Assembly: GCF_010747475.1 (NCBI RefSeq)
Contig: NZ_VSLZ01000003.1
Span: 620,001 to 684,000, forward strand
Length of the DNA stretch: 64,000 nucleotides
Reading direction: 5' to 3'
Origin: Halorussus sp. MSC15.2
GTDB taxonomy: Archaea > Halobacteriota > Halobacteria > Halobacteriales > Haladaptataceae
Of this stretch, positions 56,928 to 63,983 are shown one piece after another. The stretch's first letter is position 1. Each line of letters opens with the position of its first letter. The notes beneath the pieces are model-generated. The model was not told the DNA's origin. It saw nothing but the letters and a program-made list of their open reading frames with translations, and made no database searches. The position numbers were made by a program, and so were the translations under genes.

Positions 56928-58277
56928 TTACGCCGTCGGCGTCAACCGAACGAGCACGTCGTCCCGCTGGCGCGGGAACGTGTCGCCCTTCGGTCTGCCG
57001 TCGCGGTTCGACGTGACGGCGTAGAGGTGACCGTCGGGTCCCTGCTCGACGTGCCGGACACGACCGAGTACGTCGGTCAGCGTCCAGTGGGCGCTCGCGG
57101 CGTAGGCGTCGTCGTGCCACGCCGCGTCGAACGTCAGGCCGCGGTCGTCCGAGACCGGCGGGAGTGACGCGGCGTCGTCGGCGAAGGAGACCACGTTGAC
57201 GCGCTGGCCGATGAGGGACCCGAAGACGAGTCGGTTCCGCCACTCCGGTATGGCCTCCCCGGTGTAGAACACCCCGCCGCTGGGACCCCACGACTCCGTC
57301 GTGTTCACGAGCGGTCGGTGGAACGCGGGATTCGCCTCGTACTCCGGTCCCGTCCGCGCGTCCGGCCACCCGTAGTTCGCGCCGGGGACGAGGCGGTTCA
57401 CCTCGTCGTGGCCGTCGGGTCCGTGTTCGGTGATAATCGGCGTCGCGTCGGGGAGCCACGTGATGCACTGGGGGTTCCGGTGGCCGTAGGTGTAGACGCG
57501 CGGGTCCGGGTCGTCGCCCGGCAGGTCCGGGTTCCCCGGCGCGGGTTCGCCCACGGTGTCCACGCGGAGGACGCTCCCGGCGAGCGACGAGGTGTCCTGC
57601 GACAGCGGACCCTCGCCGGCCTCTCCGGTCGTAATCCAGAGGTAGTTCTCGGGACCGAACGCGATTCGGCCCCCGTTGTGGACGCCGCCCGCGGGAATGT
57701 CGTCCACGATGGTTCGACCCGTTCCGGCCGGGTCGTCTGCCTCCACGTCGTATCGGACGACGCGGTTCACCGTGTCGCCGTCGGACGTCGCCGTGAAGTA
57801 GACGAAGAGGTAGGGGGCCTCCGGATACCGCGGATGGACCGCGACGCCGAGCATCCCGCCTTCGCCGCCCTCGACGAACCACGTCTTCCAGTGGGGCTTG
57901 TCGTCGGGACCGGGTGCCATCGCCTCGGCGTCGATGACCTCGTCGGGCGTCGCGACGGGGTGGAGTTGGCCGCCGTCGAACCGGTGGACGCGGCCCGTCC
58001 GCTCGGTCACGAACAGTTCGCCCGTGGGCGCGAACGCGAGGTCCCACGGAATCTCCAGATTCTCGACCAACACCTCCGGCGATATCGACGCCGAAAGCGG
58101 CGACGACGCCGGTTTCTCCCACCCGGGGTCGTATCGAGACCACTCCTCGGCGGTGTGGTTGAGTTCGTACTCGGGGCCGCTACGTCGTTCAGCGAGTCTG
58201 CCACAGCCGGCGAGTCCGGCCGCACCGACGACTGCGAGGAACTGTCGTCGCGTCCGCCCGGTCGATGGTCCGCCCAT
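56928..58277 (-). CDS. PQQ-dependent sugar dehydrogenase (soluble GDH-like), Tat lipoprotein
   Basis: A 449-residue protein starting MGGPSTGRTRRQFLAVVGAAGLAGC: a twin-arginine motif plus lipobox LAGC, so an exported, lipid-anchored enzyme. The six-bladed propeller of the sorbosone/glucose dehydrogenase family is clear (PWDLAFAPTGELFVTERTGRV, GGEGGMLGVAVHP, GGVHNGGRIAFGPENYLWITTGEA, YGHRNPQCITWLPD, GPDGHDEVNRLVPGANYGWPD). The catalytic-type His in GGVHNGG region and the Arg-rich R-N-P site are present. It oxidises sugars with PQQ as cofactor outside the membrane. It lies between rpsG and fusA, splitting the str genes. Confidence 0.9.
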   Translation of the reverse strand: MGGPSTGRTRRQFLAVVGAAGLAGCGRLAERRSGPEYELNHTAEEWSRYDPGWEKPASSPLSASISPEVLVENLEIPWDLAFAPTGELFVTERTGRVHRFDGGQLHPVATPDEVIDAEAMAPGPDDKPHWKTWFVEGGEGGMLGVAVHPRYPEAPYLFVYFTATSDGDTVNRVVRYDVEADDPAGTGRTIVDDIPAGGVHNGGRIAFGPENYLWITTGEAGEGPLSQDTSSLAGSVLRVDTVGEPAPGNPDLPGDDPDPRVYTYGHRNPQCITWLPDATPIITEHGPDGHDEVNRLVPGANYGWPDARTGPEYEANPAFHRPLVNTTESWGPSGGVFYTGEAIPEWRNRLVFGSLIGQRVNVVSFADDAASLPPVSDDRGLTFDAAWHDDAYAASAHWTLTDVLGRVRHVEQGPDGHLYAVTSNRDGRPKGDTFPRQRDDVLVRLTPTA

Positions 58278-58388
58278 ACGGGTGCGTGATTTTAGGGCCA
58301 CCTAAAAACATCGATGCGCGGTCGGGCGACGCGGTGTGCGGAGCGTCGCGACTGTTGGAGGTGCAGAAGACGAGAGAGAAGAAACCGC

Positions 58389-59008: not shown

Positions 59009-59437
59009 TTATCGCACCGGCTTCTCAGCGTTTCCACGGACTAGTTCTTCGAGGCTCACGCCGTTGACCTTCACGACCTTGTAGTTGACGCCGGAGAGGT
59101 CGCCCATCGCGCGACCCTTCGCGCCGCCGATGCCCGCGATGGTGACCTCGTCGTGTTCGTCGATGAACGAGATGGCACCGTCGCCGGGACAGAAGGCGGT
59201 GACCTGCTTGCCGTTCTTGATGAGTTGGACCCGGACGCACTTCCGAATCGCGGAGTTGGGCTGTTTGGCCTCGATGCCCACTTTCTCGAGAACGATGCCA
59301 CGTCCCTGCGGAGCGCCTTCGAGGGGGTCGGACTTCTCCCCGAGACCGCGCTCGCGTCGGGCGTAATCGGAGTCGGACCACCGGTGATTCTGGCGGTCCT
59401 TCTTCAACTTTCTCGCTGCGTACTTGCCGTTCGCCAT
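59009..59437 (-). CDS. rpsL: 30S ribosomal protein S12 (uS12)
   Basis: A 142-residue ribosomal protein starting [20 protein letters not shown], with [20 protein letters not shown] (the decoding-centre segment) and the end [16 protein letters not shown]. It shapes the 30S decoding centre. Its own TATA box shows that transcription of rpsL-rpsG starts here rather than reading through from nusA. Confidence 0.97.
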
Positions 59438-59462
59438 ATGGCGTGTGCTATCCGTCCGAGCT

Positions 59463-59470
59463 ACTTAAGC
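59463..59470 (-). promoter_or_regulatory. TATA box of rpsL-rpsG
   Basis: Minus strand GCTTAAGT, 26-33 bases upstream of the rpsL start at 59437; leaderless arrangement. Confidence 0.6.
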
Positions 59471-59621
59471 CTCCCTCTTTCGAGCGGCCGTAACGGCCGC
59501 AAATCGCTCAAGCGGGGCCGATTACGGAATCTGAGCGCGTCTCAGCGAGCTGTTTTACGCGCCGCTTAGGTTCGGTTCGGTCAGCAGATTCGCTCACGGC
59601 CCGAAAAATGATTCGTGACGG

Positions 59622-61324
59622 TTAGCCTTCCAGCGAGAACACGCCGACGGTCCGACCGTCTTTGACGGAGCGAAGGCCGCCGCCACCCGCCTGAACAGCG
59701 ACGTACTGCTTGCCGACGCCCGGGTCGTACCAACTCATCGGCGAGGCGTTGACCGAGGCGTCGAACTGGTACTGCCAGAGTCGCTCGCCGGTTTCCGAAT
59801 CGTAGGCGATGAACTCGCCGTCCCCGTTGCCGACGAAGGTGAGACCGGTGGTCGTACTCATCGACCCGCCGAGGGAGAAGTTCTCCCACCGGTCCTGCCA
59901 GACGACGTCCCCGCTCACGGGGTCCACCGCCGAGAAGTACGTGAGTTGCTGAGTCCACTCGTCGGGTGCCGGACCGGGGTCCTGCATCGCGGGGTAGACG
60001 GTGAAGTTCCCGCCGAGGTACGTCGAAGGGTACTCCCACTCGCCGACCTCGTCCCACTGGAACTTGCTCGGGTAGTTCATCGCCTTCACGTGGACGTTCC
60101 CCGTCTCACGGCTGTAAGACGCCGGGTTCCACTCACCGCCGCCGTCGGCCGAGGGCATGACCCACGGCGTGTCTTCGAGGTTGTCCTGCGGCAGATACCA
60201 CATGTTGAGGTGCTGGCAGAACTCCCGGCTGCGCTCGTAGAGCTTTCCGTCCTCGGCCCCCAGCAGGTAGTTCCACCCGGTCTTTCCGGCGTGACTGACG
60301 ACCTTCTGCGTCTCGCCGTCCACCTCGGCGTCGAACAGAATCGGCGGCTGAGAGGCGTCCCAGTCCCACCAGTCGTGCTGGACCTCTTGGAAGTACCACT
60401 GGACCTCGCCGCTGTTCGTGTCGAGCGCGACGACCGCGTCCGAGTACGGGTTCGGTCCCGGCCGAACGATACCGTTCACGTCGGGACGGGATTGCCGACG
60501 TTGGCGTACAGCGTGTCGGTGTCCGGGTCGACCGTGATGGTCATCCAGTTCGTGGCCGCCCCGTTCTTCCACGCGTCGCCGACCCACTGCTCCTTCGGGA
60601 GCATCGACGTGCGCCACTCCCGCTCGCCGGTCTCGGCGTCGATGGACTCGATGAACCCCTGCACGCCGTACTCGCCGCCCGCGCTTCCGTTGAGGATGCT
60701 CCCGTTGTAGACGACGGGTGCCCACGTCGCGGAGTACCCCTGCCCGGTCGGCGCGGAGTTGTACAGCCACTTCTGCTCGCCGGTGTAGCGATTTATCGCG
60801 ACGACGTCGGCGGTCAGCGTCGTCATGTAGAGGGTGTCGCCCAGCACCGCGGCCCCGCGGTTGTTCACGCCGCAACAGGTGAGCGGCGGTTTCTCGTCGG
60901 GACCCTGTTGGTCCGGCGCGAACCGATAGACCCACAGCACCTCGCCCGACCGGGCGTTGACCGCCCGCACCACGTCGGGACCGTTGGTCTGGTACATGAT
61001 GGGCGGGTCCGAGGGCACGACGATGGGCGTCCCCTCCAACTTCCCCTTCTCGTCGGTCTTGATGGTGTACTCCAGCGAGAGTTCCGAGACGTTCTCCGGA
61101 GTTATCACGTCCGCCGACGTGAACCGCTGCTGGCGGTAGCCACCGCCGTACATCAGCCAGCTCTGGGGGTCGTCGCCCGAATCCAGCAGCATCTCCTGTG
61201 TGACGTTGAGTTCCGGAATCTGCTGGTCGCTCTGTCGAATCGTCTCCGGGCCGTCCGCGAGATACCGGACGACGGTTCCGTCTTCGGTCGTGCGTACGTC
61301 GGCGTGCGGTTGGTCGATACTCAT
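59622..61324 (-). pseudogene. PQQ-dependent alcohol dehydrogenase (XoxF/ExaA-like), one frameshift
   Basis: Read from the ATG at 61322-61324, MSIDQPHADVRTTEDG leads into an eight-bladed quinoprotein propeller. Near 60480 the frame changes; one missing base in AATCCC(A)GTCCCG joins VGNP to SPDVNGIVRPGPNPYSD and on to the stop at 59622, giving 567 residues. Expected active-site residues are all there: vicinal Cys150-Cys151 (LTCCGVN), Glu218 (GGEYGVQG), Asn278 (VGNPSP), catalytic Asp321 and, two residues on, Asp323 (HDWWDWDAS). The second Asp is the mark of lanthanide-dependent members. There is no signal peptide; the gene upstream, two bases away, encodes a Tat-signal protein. Confidence 0.88.
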
Positions 61325-61326
61325 GG

Positions 61327-62256
61327 TCAGTCACCTCCGAACGGTGCGCGCGTCTCGTCGGTTATCCTGAACAGGTCCGCCTCGATGGCCTCCTGTCCGC
61401 GAATCGCTATCGCCGACCCGCCCGCGAGCGCGGCGGCGAGTTGGCTGTCGGTCAACTCCTCGGGACCGGCGAGGTCCCGCGCCGCGGAGACGAACATGTG
61501 GACCCCGCCCAGCATCTGTTTCACGTCCCAGATGCCGTCGTCGAGCATGGACTCGGTCAGTAACACTTCCCGCTGCCAGAGTTGCTGGTCGAGTTCGTCT
61601 ATCCAGAGCAGCGCCCCGCCGAGCGCTCGCTGGTGGAGCGGTGCCACGTTCTCCGGGTCGTAGTCCTCCGGGTCGGCCGGGAGGCTGGCGGTCGAGACCC
61701 AGTGTGCGAGTCGCTCGTTCTCGTTGACGACGTCCACGACGGCCGCCGTGCGCTCGCGTTCGGTGAGACCCGCGTCGGCGAGCGCCGCGGTCAGCGGTTC
61801 GGCCCGAATCAACTCAGCGGCGGTCGCTCGAACGTGGTCGGGCGTGAACTCCGGCAGGTGGCGCTCGGCCGCCGCGAAGAAGCCGACCTCCGCGAGGTGG
61901 TCGTAGGCGTCCCACGCGGGCGCGGCCACCTCCTGATACGCGGTCCCCTGCTCGGCCGGAAAGCCCGCGGCCCGGAGTTCCGGCAGTTCGGCGATGCCCG
62001 CCTCGATACCCGCGAGCGACCCCGAGAGCCGTCCCCCGTCGAGTCCGCCCGCGAGGTCGGCCCGGATTCGCTCGCCGTACGTCGCCAGTTCGTCGGCCGA
62101 CCCCTCGCCGACCGCTCCGCGAAGGTCGGACAGCGAGAGTTCCGAGGCCGCGCCGACGCCCCCGGTCACGCCGAGTATCTTGAGGAAGTTGCGCCGGTCG
62201 CGCTCGTCCACGTCCGGTACGTCGTCCGATACCGTGTCATTGAGTTCCATTCCCAT
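61327..62256 (-). CDS. Tat-signal protein of unknown function, partner of the PQQ dehydrogenase
   Basis: A 309-residue protein starting MGMELNDTVSDDVPDVDERD (an alternative ATG is at 62250). The twin-arginine motif DRRNFLKILGVTGGVG lies near residues 20-35. The mature part is helical, acidic and free of Cys, so it has no haem or iron-sulfur site (TAYQEVAAPAWDAYDHLAEVGFF, HQRALGGALLWIDELDQQLW, MLGGVHMFVSAARDLAG). It ends two bases before the PQQ dehydrogenase start, so they form an operon. Because the enzyme lacks a signal, this protein may carry it through the Tat pore. Confidence 0.75.
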   Translation of the reverse strand: MGMELNDTVSDDVPDVDERDRRNFLKILGVTGGVGAASELSLSDLRGAVGEGSADELATYGERIRADLAGGLDGGRLSGSLAGIEAGIAELPELRAAGFPAEQGTAYQEVAAPAWDAYDHLAEVGFFAAAERHLPEFTPDHVRATAAELIRAEPLTAALADAGLTERERTAAVVDVVNENERLAHWVSTASLPADPEDYDPENVAPLHQRALGGALLWIDELDQQLWQREVLLTESMLDDGIWDVKQMLGGVHMFVSAARDLAGPEELTDSQLAAALAGGSAIAIRGQEAIEADLFRITDETRAPFGGD

Positions 62257-62528
62257 CCCCACGGAACCATCACCACTATCGACAAACTGTTTTTCCCTCG
62301 GAAACACGGCTCTCGAACCTAAAATTTCGGCGTTGAGCCATCAGAGCGAGCGGCCGACGGTGGCTCTCGACCGCTGGTCGGCAGTATTTTCGGCGGTAGA
62401 GCCGCCGAATCAGCGGGGCGTCTTCGAACGTTTCTCTGATACGTTACGGGGAGAACGACCTAACTTGCGGGAGTCAGCCGCGCAGTTAGCGGATTCCACA
62501 GGCGTAGAACTGTTGCTGGGGCAACATT

Positions 62529-63407
62529 TTAGCGGTCGTCTCGCCGCCCGTCCTCGGTACGTGCATCGTCCGCAGAAACGGCCTCCGACGGACGAACCCC
62601 GGCGAGGAACTCGCGCACGGCGTCGGTGAAGAACGCCGGATTGTCGAGGTTGGAAGCGTGACCCGCGCCCGGAATCTCCCGGACCGTTGCGTTCGGAATC
62701 GCCGCACCCAACTTCGGCGCGTGTCGCCGGACGAACGGCGGTTCGTTCTCGCCGTACAGCACCAGCGTCGGGACGGTAATCGCCGAGAGGTCCAGCGCCG
62801 TCTCGTGGAACGCCGCGACGGCGTGGACGACCTTGGCGAACTCCTCGGTCTCCATCTTCGGACCGTCCCTCCGGAGCCGCTCTATCTTCTCGTAGTCGCC
62901 GCTGACCCCTTCGCCGTGGAATCGCCGCTGGAGCCACACCAGCGCGCGCTCGACCCGTTCGTAGCCGACGAGACGGACCGGCGGGACGGCGGCCCGCAGC
63001 GCGACGGACCGCTGGAGCCACTCGCGTCGGTCGAACAGTTCGGGGGTGAACGTATCGGCCAGAATCAGTCCGGCCAATCGGTCGGGGCGAGCGGCCGCGT
63101 ACGTCTGAGCGATGCATCCGCCGGTCGAAAGTCCGCAAACGACGGGGGAGTCGAGACCTAACGCCGTGACGAGCGCGTCGAGGTCGGCGGCGAACAGGTC
63201 GATGGAGTAGGCGTCTCTGGGCGACCCGCCGGTTCGGCCGTGGCCTCGAACGTCGTAGGCGATAGTGGTGTACTCGTCGCTCAAGGCGTCCACCTGGGGG
63301 TCCCACTGAGAGTGGTCGAGGATAGCGCCGTGAACGAAGACGAGCGGCGGTCCGTCGCCGCGTCGCTCGTAGTAGGTTTCGACGTCGTTCGTCCGGACTG
63401 TAGGCAT
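62529..63407 (-). CDS. Alpha/beta-fold hydrolase
   Basis: A 292-residue protein. The oxyanion segment is VFVHGAILDHSQW, the nucleophile elbow GLSTGG (Ser about residue 94) and the His is in GAGHASNLDNP. In the usual acid position the sequence is YGENEPPFV, with Glu where Asp is normally found, so the third member of the triad is unsure. The C-terminal 25 residues are acidic and disordered. The family covers esterases, lactonases and C-C hydrolases; no substrate is assigned. It lies between nusA and the PQQ operon in the same direction. Confidence 0.85.
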   Translation of the reverse strand: MPTVRTNDVETYYERRGDGPPLVFVHGAILDHSQWDPQVDALSDEYTTIAYDVRGHGRTGGSPRDAYSIDLFAADLDALVTALGLDSPVVCGLSTGGCIAQTYAAARPDRLAGLILADTFTPELFDRREWLQRSVALRAAVPPVRLVGYERVERALVWLQRRFHGEGVSGDYEKIERLRRDGPKMETEEFAKVVHAVAAFHETALDLSAITVPTLVLYGENEPPFVRRHAPKLGAAIPNATVREIPGAGHASNLDNPAFFTDAVREFLAGVRPSEAVSADDARTEDGRRDDR

Positions 63408-63545
63408 GGCGTCTGGGAGGCGCTCGACGGAGATGAACCTACCCGGAGCTGCGTGCGGAGCGACACGATACCGAACCGCCGGACGGAATCGAAACGCGAA
63501 AATCGGACTGTGAGAAATCGAGACGCGGTCGGACGAGACCCGCGT

Positions 63546-63983
63546 TCAGGTCAACTGGATGTCGTCGATGTCGTAGTGGCGCTTGGCGAGTCTCTCCGCG
63601 GCCGCGATGTTCCGGCCGTCCTCGCCGATGGCGACGCCGGTGTCCTCGGAGTCCACCTCGGCGTAGGCGACCGTCTCGTCGTCCTCGCTGACGGTGACGT
63701 TGTACACCGCCGCCGGGGCGAGCGCGTTGGCCACGAACGCCTCGGGCGTGTCGGCGTCTTCGACCAGCATCACCGATTTGCCCAGTTGGGATTCGACGTT
63801 CCGGACGGTCTCGCCGCCCGACCCGATGGCCTGCGCCATGTCGCCGGGCTTGACGATGAAGACCACGCGCTCGTCGCCGTCTTCCCCGTCCTCGAAGACG
63901 ACGCAGTCGCGGGCGGTCGCGCCGGTCTCGTCCTCGAAGAGGGCGATGAACTGGCGGGCCGTGTCCGAGAGCGTGACGACCAT
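63546..63983 (-). CDS. nusA: NusA-like transcription elongation factor (two KH domains)
   Basis: A 145-residue protein starting MVVTLSDTARQFIALFEDETG. There are two KH domains: the first with FIVKPGDMAQAIGSGGETVRNVESQLGK and the second with DTGVAIGEDGRNIAAAERLAKRHYDIDDI. This short form, without S1 or acidic repeats, is the archaeal NusA encoded between the RNA polymerase genes and rpsL. It binds RNA and probably aids transcription termination or pausing. Confidence 0.95.
   Translation of the reverse strand: MVVTLSDTARQFIALFEDETGATARDCVVFEDGEDGDERVVFIVKPGDMAQAIGSGGETVRNVESQLGKSVMLVEDADTPEAFVANALAPAAVYNVTVSEDDETVAYAEVDSEDTGVAIGEDGRNIAAAERLAKRHYDIDDIQLT

What the first reader, a model, noticed from the sequence alone, without database searches (positions are those of the whole stretch)
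60340..60380. Asp-x-Asp lanthanide signature in a haloarchaeal PQQ alcohol dehydrogenase
After repair of one missing base, the catalytic segment reads HDWWDWDAS: Asp321 is the catalytic base and Asp323 sits two residues later. In the methanol/ethanol dehydrogenase family the Ca-dependent MxaF type has Ala or Ser at that +2 place, whereas XoxF, PedH and ExaF have Asp, which binds La/Ce. The other ligands (Glu218 in GGEYG, Asn278 in VGNPSP) and the vicinal Cys150-Cys151 are also present. A lanthanide-dependent quinoprotein in an extreme halophile would be unexpected.
Basis: partly seen in the sequence, partly recalled or inferred. Interest (0 to 1): 0.78.

Follow-up and report, generated by a model that had tools for sequence, protein, structure and literature searches.

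The report
Lanthanide-type alcohol dehydrogenase in haloarchaea
A salt-loving archaeon (Halorussus) carries a one-base-damaged copy of a widespread but undescribed haloarchaeal alcohol-oxidising enzyme whose metal pocket has all four residues that hold rare-earth ions in bacterial enzymes, although rare-earth use and the source of its PQQ cofactor remain unproven.

Summary
The motif is real. The gene lies on the minus strand, 61324-59622, and is split by a one-base deletion (a G beside 60486/60487). Twelve of 17 other same-genus genomes hold an intact orthologue (76-90% identical), so the damage is private to this assembly. Residue 280 is Gly, not Ser.

D321-W-D323 aligns with the catalytic Asp and +2 Asp of XoxF and PedH. 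All 81 haloarchaeal copies compared have D-x-D and the Asn. All 66 with the Cys pair also have the Glu, giving the complete E/N/D/D lanthanide set. The nearest solved structure by sequence and fold is lanthanide PedH.

Two limits apply. D-x-D is probably ancestral, and E. coli glucose dehydrogenase has it with different metal ligands, so the motif alone proves nothing. No PQQ-synthesis genes were found (pqqC over cut-off in 0 of 391 haloarchaeal genomes; a positive control rang).

New here: a distinct haloarchaeal clade (70 of 391 genomes, 20 of 86 genera) with an all-helical partner gene without Pfam or PDB relatives directly upstream, often a blue-copper gene downstream, and blue-copper fusions among paralogues. 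Lanthanide dependence is a good prediction, not shown.

The parts
60476..61324 (-). PQQ alcohol dehydrogenase, N-terminal part (282 aa up to the premature stop): E97, C150-C151, R156, E218, W floor, N278
   Evidence: PF01011 E=6.8e-24
59622..60485 (-). PQQ alcohol dehydrogenase, C-terminal part in another frame, containing D321-W-D323
   Evidence: PF01011 E=7e-39
60351..60377 (-). Catalytic/metal segment HDWWDWDAS; D321 codon 60363-60365, D323 codon 60357-60359
60486..60487 (-). Site of the one-base (G) deletion relative to intact orthologues
60671..60673 (-). Glu218 codon (GGEYG), predicted metal ligand
60491..60493 (-). Asn278 codon (VGNPGP), predicted metal ligand
60872..60877 (-). Vicinal Cys150-Cys151
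61327..62307 (-). Partner gene: all-helical protein (326 aa as read from a GTG start; the start is uncertain) with Tat-like RRNFLKILG; homologues lie directly upstream of nearly every haloarchaeal copy of the dehydrogenase
   Evidence: model pLDDT 86.7, no PDB fold match
59009..59437 (-). rpsL (uS12), same direction; the downstream neighbour in ten Halorussus loci
63546..63983 (-). nusA, upstream neighbour (an alpha/beta hydrolase gene, 62529-63407, lies between in the window and in H. aquaticus)

Best explanation
This is a frameshifted copy of a haloarchaeal clade of PQQ-type alcohol dehydrogenases with a lanthanide-type active site. Shown: the quinoprotein fold (modelled on the intact orthologue), the catalytic Asp321, and the metal-ligand set Glu218/Asn278/Asp321/Asp323 with the vicinal Cys pair, identical in type to PedH and XoxF. 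Inferred: in intact relatives a light lanthanide ion held by these four side chains polarises PQQ, Asp321 takes the proton from the alcohol, PQQ takes the hydride, and electrons pass one at a time to a blue-copper (halocyanin-like) protein. The dehydrogenase has no signal peptide of its own; in Halorussus it is probably carried out through the Tat pathway by the helical partner encoded just upstream. PQQ is probably scavenged from outside, which would need no outer-membrane importer in an archaeon.
For: Column identity with PedH and XoxF over all four ligands. Gly at the XoxF Gly171 position, as in Ln enzymes (with PMC11845868). Best PDB sequence match is PedH (9e-66) and best fold match is PedH (TM 0.84/0.85, rmsd 2.5) for the 90%-identical intact orthologue (model pLDDT 90.8). 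Among the rows compared, Ca-type residues (A/S/T at +2) occur only in MxaF, ExaA-like and quinohaemoprotein-type rows. D321, D323 and N278 are invariant in 81/81 haloarchaeal copies. Partner gene upstream of essentially all haloarchaeal and none of the bacterial copies. A Tat-signal blue-copper gene directly downstream in most Natrialbaceae and in Haladaptatus, and cupredoxin-quinoprotein fusions among Halorussus paralogues.
Against: No metal or activity data. pqqC over cut-off in 0/391 Halobacteria; pqqB/pqqE only generic sub-cut-off hits. D-x-D is probably ancestral and also occurs in Gcd, a Mg/Ca enzyme (metal from own knowledge; motif). Pro rather than Thr at the XoxF 259 position (but PedH has Pro too). 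The Tat-like motif scores below curated cut-offs and is missing from partners in Natrialbaceae, so localisation is unsure. No blue-copper gene lies next to the window copy. The window copy is frameshifted and may be dead or a sequencing error.
Confidence: 0.55

Rival explanations
1. A PQQ dehydrogenase with an ancestral D-x-D pocket that in brine works mainly with the abundant Ca or Mg, i.e. metal-promiscuous rather than lanthanide-dependent.
For: D-x-D is most simply the ancestral state. E. coli Gcd has D466-x-D468 and is a Mg/Ca enzyme (own knowledge); an ISME J paper predicts Gcd to be facultative (PMC11996626). A review states that PedH can coordinate Ca when rare earths are absent (PMC11845868). 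Brines hold much Ca and Mg and little dissolved lanthanide (general knowledge).
Against: Gcd lacks the Glu and Asn ligands (D354/N355/T424 in those columns), so it is not a like-for-like case. The characterised reference enzymes in the table that have the complete E/N/D/D set (6DAM, 6ZCW) are lanthanide enzymes.
Confidence: 0.25
2. An 'empty' quinoprotein that binds no PQQ, like the acidobacterial TIGR04528 group, with another role.
For: No PQQ synthesis genes found; a TIGR04528 match of 283 bits.
Against: TIGR04528 is far below its cut-off (650) and TIGR03075 scores higher (357). The catalytic Asp, metal ligands, Cys pair, Glu97, Arg156, Trp and Lys348 of the cofactor pocket are conserved over the clade. 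Many bacteria with PQQ enzymes scavenge PQQ (PMC12124388 abstract).
Confidence: 0.12
3. For this strain only: a pseudogene. The frameshift is real and the copy is dead, its role perhaps taken by the intact paralogue on contig C1 (L006 8554-6857). This can be true together with the best explanation, which concerns the clade.
For: The one-base deletion. The first half has higher dS and dN than the second (0.50/0.11 against 0.21/0.02). An intact paralogue is present.
Against: Both halves look under purifying selection against H. aquaticus (dN/dS 0.22 and 0.11), with no other stops. A sequencing or assembly slip in this 25-contig draft is equally possible.
Confidence: 0.4

Closest known systems
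PedH / ExaF lanthanide ethanol dehydrogenase (PDB 6ZCV, 6ZCW)
   Same: Quinoprotein propeller fold; Cys pair; E/N/D/D ligands; Gly before the Glu; Pro at the 259 position; best sequence and fold match
   Different: About 29% identity in the Foldseek alignment; Lys instead of Arg in the PQQ pocket; DWDAS/DYDS instead of DFDG; no signal peptide; helical partner; separate clade
XoxF lanthanide methanol dehydrogenase (PDB 6DAM, 4MAE, 6OC5)
   Same: Cys pair and E/N/D/D ligands
   Different: Thr259 of XoxF is Pro here; no XoxG/XoxJ genes beside it in the window; outside the XoxF/MxaF branch
Quinohaemoprotein alcohol dehydrogenase (1YIQ, 1KV9, 1KB0)
   Same: Cys pair, Lys in the PQQ pocket, similar Q-P stretch after the motif
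   Different: Thr at +2 (Ca type); the C-terminal cytochrome c domain is absent here
E. coli membrane glucose dehydrogenase Gcd
   Same: D-x-D (D466, D468), PQQ propeller
   Different: No Cys pair; metal columns hold D354/N355/T424 instead of Glu/Asn; membrane anchor
D-Y-D quinoproteins of heterotrophic marine Thaumarchaeota (PMC7300363)
   Same: Archaeal PQQ dehydrogenases, some with D-Y-D or D-x-D
   Different: All lack the Cys pair according to that paper; other lineage; sequences not compared here
Binatota, Gemmatimonadota and Opitutae quinoproteins (L111, L117, L110, L109)
   Same: Cys pair, Glu, Asn, D-x-D; nearest bacterial relatives found (34-38% identity)
   Different: Own signal peptide where checked (L110, L109); no partner gene; not characterised

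Membership tests
PQQ-dependent alcohol dehydrogenase superfamily (PF01011) | Match to the PQQ propeller profile above gathering score | tested here: met
   84.9 and 134.4 bits for the two parts, 221.9 for the intact orthologue; cut-off 26.7
PQQ-dependent alcohol dehydrogenase superfamily (PF01011) | Catalytic Asp, PQQ-pocket residues and vicinal Cys pair | tested here: met
   D321, R156, C150-C151, E97, Trp, K348
Methanol/ethanol subfamily TIGR03075 | Score above NCBI cut-off (480 bits) | tested here: not met
   357.4 bits for the intact orthologue; best subfamily but under the cut-off
Lanthanide-type PQQ-ADH (XoxF/ExaF/PedH) | Asp at +2 from the catalytic Asp | tested here: met
Lanthanide-type PQQ-ADH (XoxF/ExaF/PedH) | Glu and Asn ligands in register with XoxF Glu197/Asn285 (6DAM) | tested here: met
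   E218, N278
Lanthanide-type PQQ-ADH (XoxF/ExaF/PedH) | Placement inside the XoxF or PedH branch | tested here: not met
   Separate haloarchaeal branch (SH-aLRT 99) outside the branch holding XoxF, PedH and quinohaemoprotein ADH (quick tree)
Lanthanide-type PQQ-ADH (XoxF/ExaF/PedH) | Activity dependent on La/Ce/Nd | not testable with these tools
   Needs protein
XoxF proper | Thr at the 259 position | tested here: not met
   Pro in all 81 haloarchaeal rows
Acido-empty quinoprotein TIGR04528 | Score above cut-off (650 bits) | tested here: not met
   283 bits
PQQ producer | pqqC over the curated cut-off | tested here: not met
   0/391 Halobacteria; positive control Sulfitobacter plasmid 2e-116
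Tat-exported complex | Twin-arginine signal on the partner above curated cut-off | tested here: inconclusive
   RRNFLKILG present; PF10518 16.4 bits (cut-off 22.7), TIGR01409 15.1 (cut-off 16.7); absent in Natrialbaceae partners

The most novel reading that the evidence does not exclude
Haloarchaea possess their own lanthanide-dependent alcohol-oxidation system: a signal-less E/N/D/D quinoprotein exported with a previously unknown helical Tat partner, loaded with scavenged PQQ, and passing electrons to blue-copper proteins, with paralogues in which the copper protein is fused to the quinoprotein.
Probability: 0.35. Interest if true: 0.78.

Novelty: new variant of a known kind. Interest (0 to 1): 0.55.

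Why it matters
If intact members need lanthanides, rare-earth enzymology would extend to a cultured archaeal class living in brine, and archaeal use could be tested in strains already in culture collections (Halorussus, Natrinema, Natrialba). It would also pose a clear question: how an enzyme that needs PQQ works in a class where no PQQ synthesis genes were found. The helical partner, without Pfam or PDB relatives, and the blue-copper fusions suggest an electron path different from the cytochrome c route of bacteria.

Tried and rejected
pqqC in the 14 control genomes rang nowhere, so a positive control was added. Treating E. coli Gcd as a direct counter-example was weakened once its metal columns proved different. 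A fold search for the partner gave no match with E <= 0.001. Literature searches for haloarchaea with lanthanide, PQQ, quinoprotein and rare-earth terms found no report of such enzymes. Some key subscription papers (e.g. Keltjens 2014, Huang 2019) could not be read here (for Huang), so earlier notice there cannot be excluded.

Full report
Observation. The gene is on the minus strand from 61324 to 59622. Frame 1 runs to ..LYANVGNPVPT* (stop at 60476), and the rest of the protein continues in another frame from about 60485. One missing base explains it. Of ten orthologues from other Halorussus genomes examined at DNA level, the nine that could be matched carry GG where the window has a single G, so residue 280 is Gly (VGNPGPDVNG) and not Ser. 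The own genome (G000, 4.41 Mb, 25 contigs) holds this copy only in broken form, plus an intact, more distant paralogue on contig C1. Twelve of the 17 other same-genus genomes searched hold an intact orthologue with 76-90% identity. The break is therefore private to this assembly. Both halves look under purifying selection against H. aquaticus (dN/dS 0.22 and 0.11), so a recent mutation and a sequencing slip cannot be told apart here.

The motif. HDWWDWDAS is encoded at 60351-60377, with D321 the catalytic base and D323 at +2. In PDB alignments it lies in register with HDGWDFDGVN of PedH and HDEWDYDGIN of XoxF. In a table of 139 homologues and references, all 81 haloarchaeal rows have Asp at both places and Asn278. 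All 66 rows with the vicinal Cys pair also have Glu218. 73 rows have Gly at the XoxF 171 place, with alignment gaps in the other eight. MxaF reads D-x-A, an ExaA-like protein D-x-S, quinohaemoprotein ADH D-x-T. A review lists Glu197/Asn285/Asp327/Asp329 for XoxF 6DAM, shows Asp325 of PedH as a bidentate ligand, and names Gly171 and Thr259 as further XoxF marks (PMC11845868). The haloarchaeal protein has the Gly but has Pro in place of Thr259, as PedH does.

Is D-x-D diagnostic? Not alone. E. coli Gcd has D466-M-D468. Its metal columns, however, hold D354, N355 and T424 rather than Glu and Asn (that these are its metal ligands is from my own knowledge), so it is not a like-for-like exception. 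A 2025 survey uses D-x-D as its lanthanide proxy and predicts Gcd to be facultative (PMC11996626). In a quick maximum-likelihood tree of 63 rows rooted on Gcd, the haloarchaeal proteins form one branch (SH-aLRT 99). It lies outside the branch that holds XoxF/MxaF, PedH/ExaA-like and quinohaemoprotein ADH, and nearly all other bacterial rows also have D-x-D. D-x-D is thus most simply ancestral and the Ca-type residues derived. The tree has no bootstrap, a long outgroup branch, and PDB rows pieced together from printed alignments, so deep branching is tentative.

Fold. The 90%-identical intact orthologue from H. aquaticus gives a confident model (pLDDT 90.8, pTM 0.93). Its best PDB fold match is PedH 6ZCW (E 1.3e-47, TM 0.84/0.85, rmsd 2.5, 29% identity). 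By sequence the best match is again PedH (9e-66). By curated family it scores 357 bits for TIGR03075 (cut-off 480) and 283 for TIGR04528 (cut-off 650), so it passes neither curated cut-off.

Spread. At E<=1e-20, 70 of 391 Halobacteria genomes hold homologues, in 20 of 86 genera. Named hosts include Halorussus, Halolamina, Haloplanus, Natrinema, Natrialba, Natronococcus, Halorubrum, Halomarina and Haladaptatus. In ten Halorussus loci rpsL lies downstream, about 190 nt away in most, with nusA upstream where the locus reaches: an alcohol dehydrogenase inside the transcription/ribosomal gene cluster.

Partner. A gene of about 300 codons lies directly upstream of practically every haloarchaeal copy and of none of the bacterial ones. 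The few haloarchaeal exceptions include copies near the edge of the DNA held. The partner has no Pfam or NCBIfam family, is predicted all-helical with good confidence (pLDDT 86.7), and has no PDB fold match at E<=0.001. In Halorussus and several others it begins with a Tat-like RRxFLK stretch, below curated cut-offs. In Natrialbaceae and others the aligned stretch lacks the twin Arg. Some bacterial copies visibly carry their own signal peptides (L109, L110), while the haloarchaeal ones start without any. Tat carriage by the partner is my inference for Halorussus; for the Natrialbaceae the route is open.

Electron acceptor. In most Natrialbaceae and in Haladaptatus the next gene downstream encodes a Tat-signal protein with blue-copper domains (PF00127 for L043). 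In Halorussus a paralogue class fuses a blue-copper domain to the quinoprotein (sequences read for L029, L107, L108; halocyanin and PF00127 matches for L108). This supports a blue-copper acceptor by association. The window copy itself has no such neighbour.

PQQ supply. pqqC: 0 of 391 Halobacteria over the cut-off, positive control at 2e-116. pqqE and pqqB: only sub-cut-off matches in 14 haloarchaeal genomes, control over cut-off. Either PQQ is taken from outside or another cofactor is used. Archaeal use of PQQ is not without precedent: the second candidate quinoprotein in this window matches 3A9G/3A9H, which I recall as the PQQ aldose dehydrogenase of Pyrobaculum.

Verdict. The lanthanide reading is a reasoned prediction, strengthened by the full ligand set across the clade and weakened by the ancestral nature of D-x-D, the lack of PQQ genes and the broken copy. 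Archaeal D-Y-D quinoproteins were noted before in marine Thaumarchaeota, where they lack the Cys pair (PMC7300363). I found no earlier report for haloarchaea in the library held.

Noticed in passing
window 56928-58301 (-): A second candidate quinoprotein: Tat-lipoprotein-like member of the soluble glucose/sorbosone dehydrogenase family (PF07995, 2.3e-78), similar to 2ISM and 3A9G/3A9H, between rpsG and the EF-2 gene.
   Followed up: partly
L107 7506-9605, L108 7521-9623, L029 1000-3105; similar long frames in L030-L033, L037-L039: Halorussus paralogues in which a blue-copper (halocyanin-like) domain is fused to the N-terminus of a D-x-D quinoprotein lacking the Cys pair: a copper counterpart of quinohaemoprotein ADH.
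   Followed up: partly
window 61327-62307 (-) and homologues in L067-L106: Conserved all-helical partner family with no Pfam, NCBIfam or PDB fold relative; Tat-like start in some lineages only.
   Followed up: partly
window 59009-63983 (-): Dehydrogenase and partner sit between nusA and rpsL in Halorussus, i.e. inside the normally purely informational rpo/str gene cluster.
   Followed up: yes
window 60488-61324 versus 59622-60485: The first half of the gene is about twice as diverged at silent sites from H. aquaticus (dS 0.50) as the second half (0.21), and more than the partner gene (0.12), which hints at a recombined segment ending near the frameshift.
   Followed up: no
L006 5664-9483 (-): Own-genome paralogue operon on contig C1: Tat partner, intact dehydrogenase HDWWDYDSPSP without Cys pair, then a Tat protein with blue-copper and CHRD domains.
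   Followed up: partly
L117, L120 genomes: Binatota genomes with D-x-D quinoproteins show only weak pqqC matches (6e-10, 1e-7), so they too may lack ordinary PQQ synthesis.
   Followed up: no
L135, L141, L146: Metagenome bins titled Klebsiella pneumoniae carry quinoproteins resembling those of Binatota and environmental Gammaproteobacteria (L146 groups with them in the tree); the species label is probably wrong.
   Followed up: no
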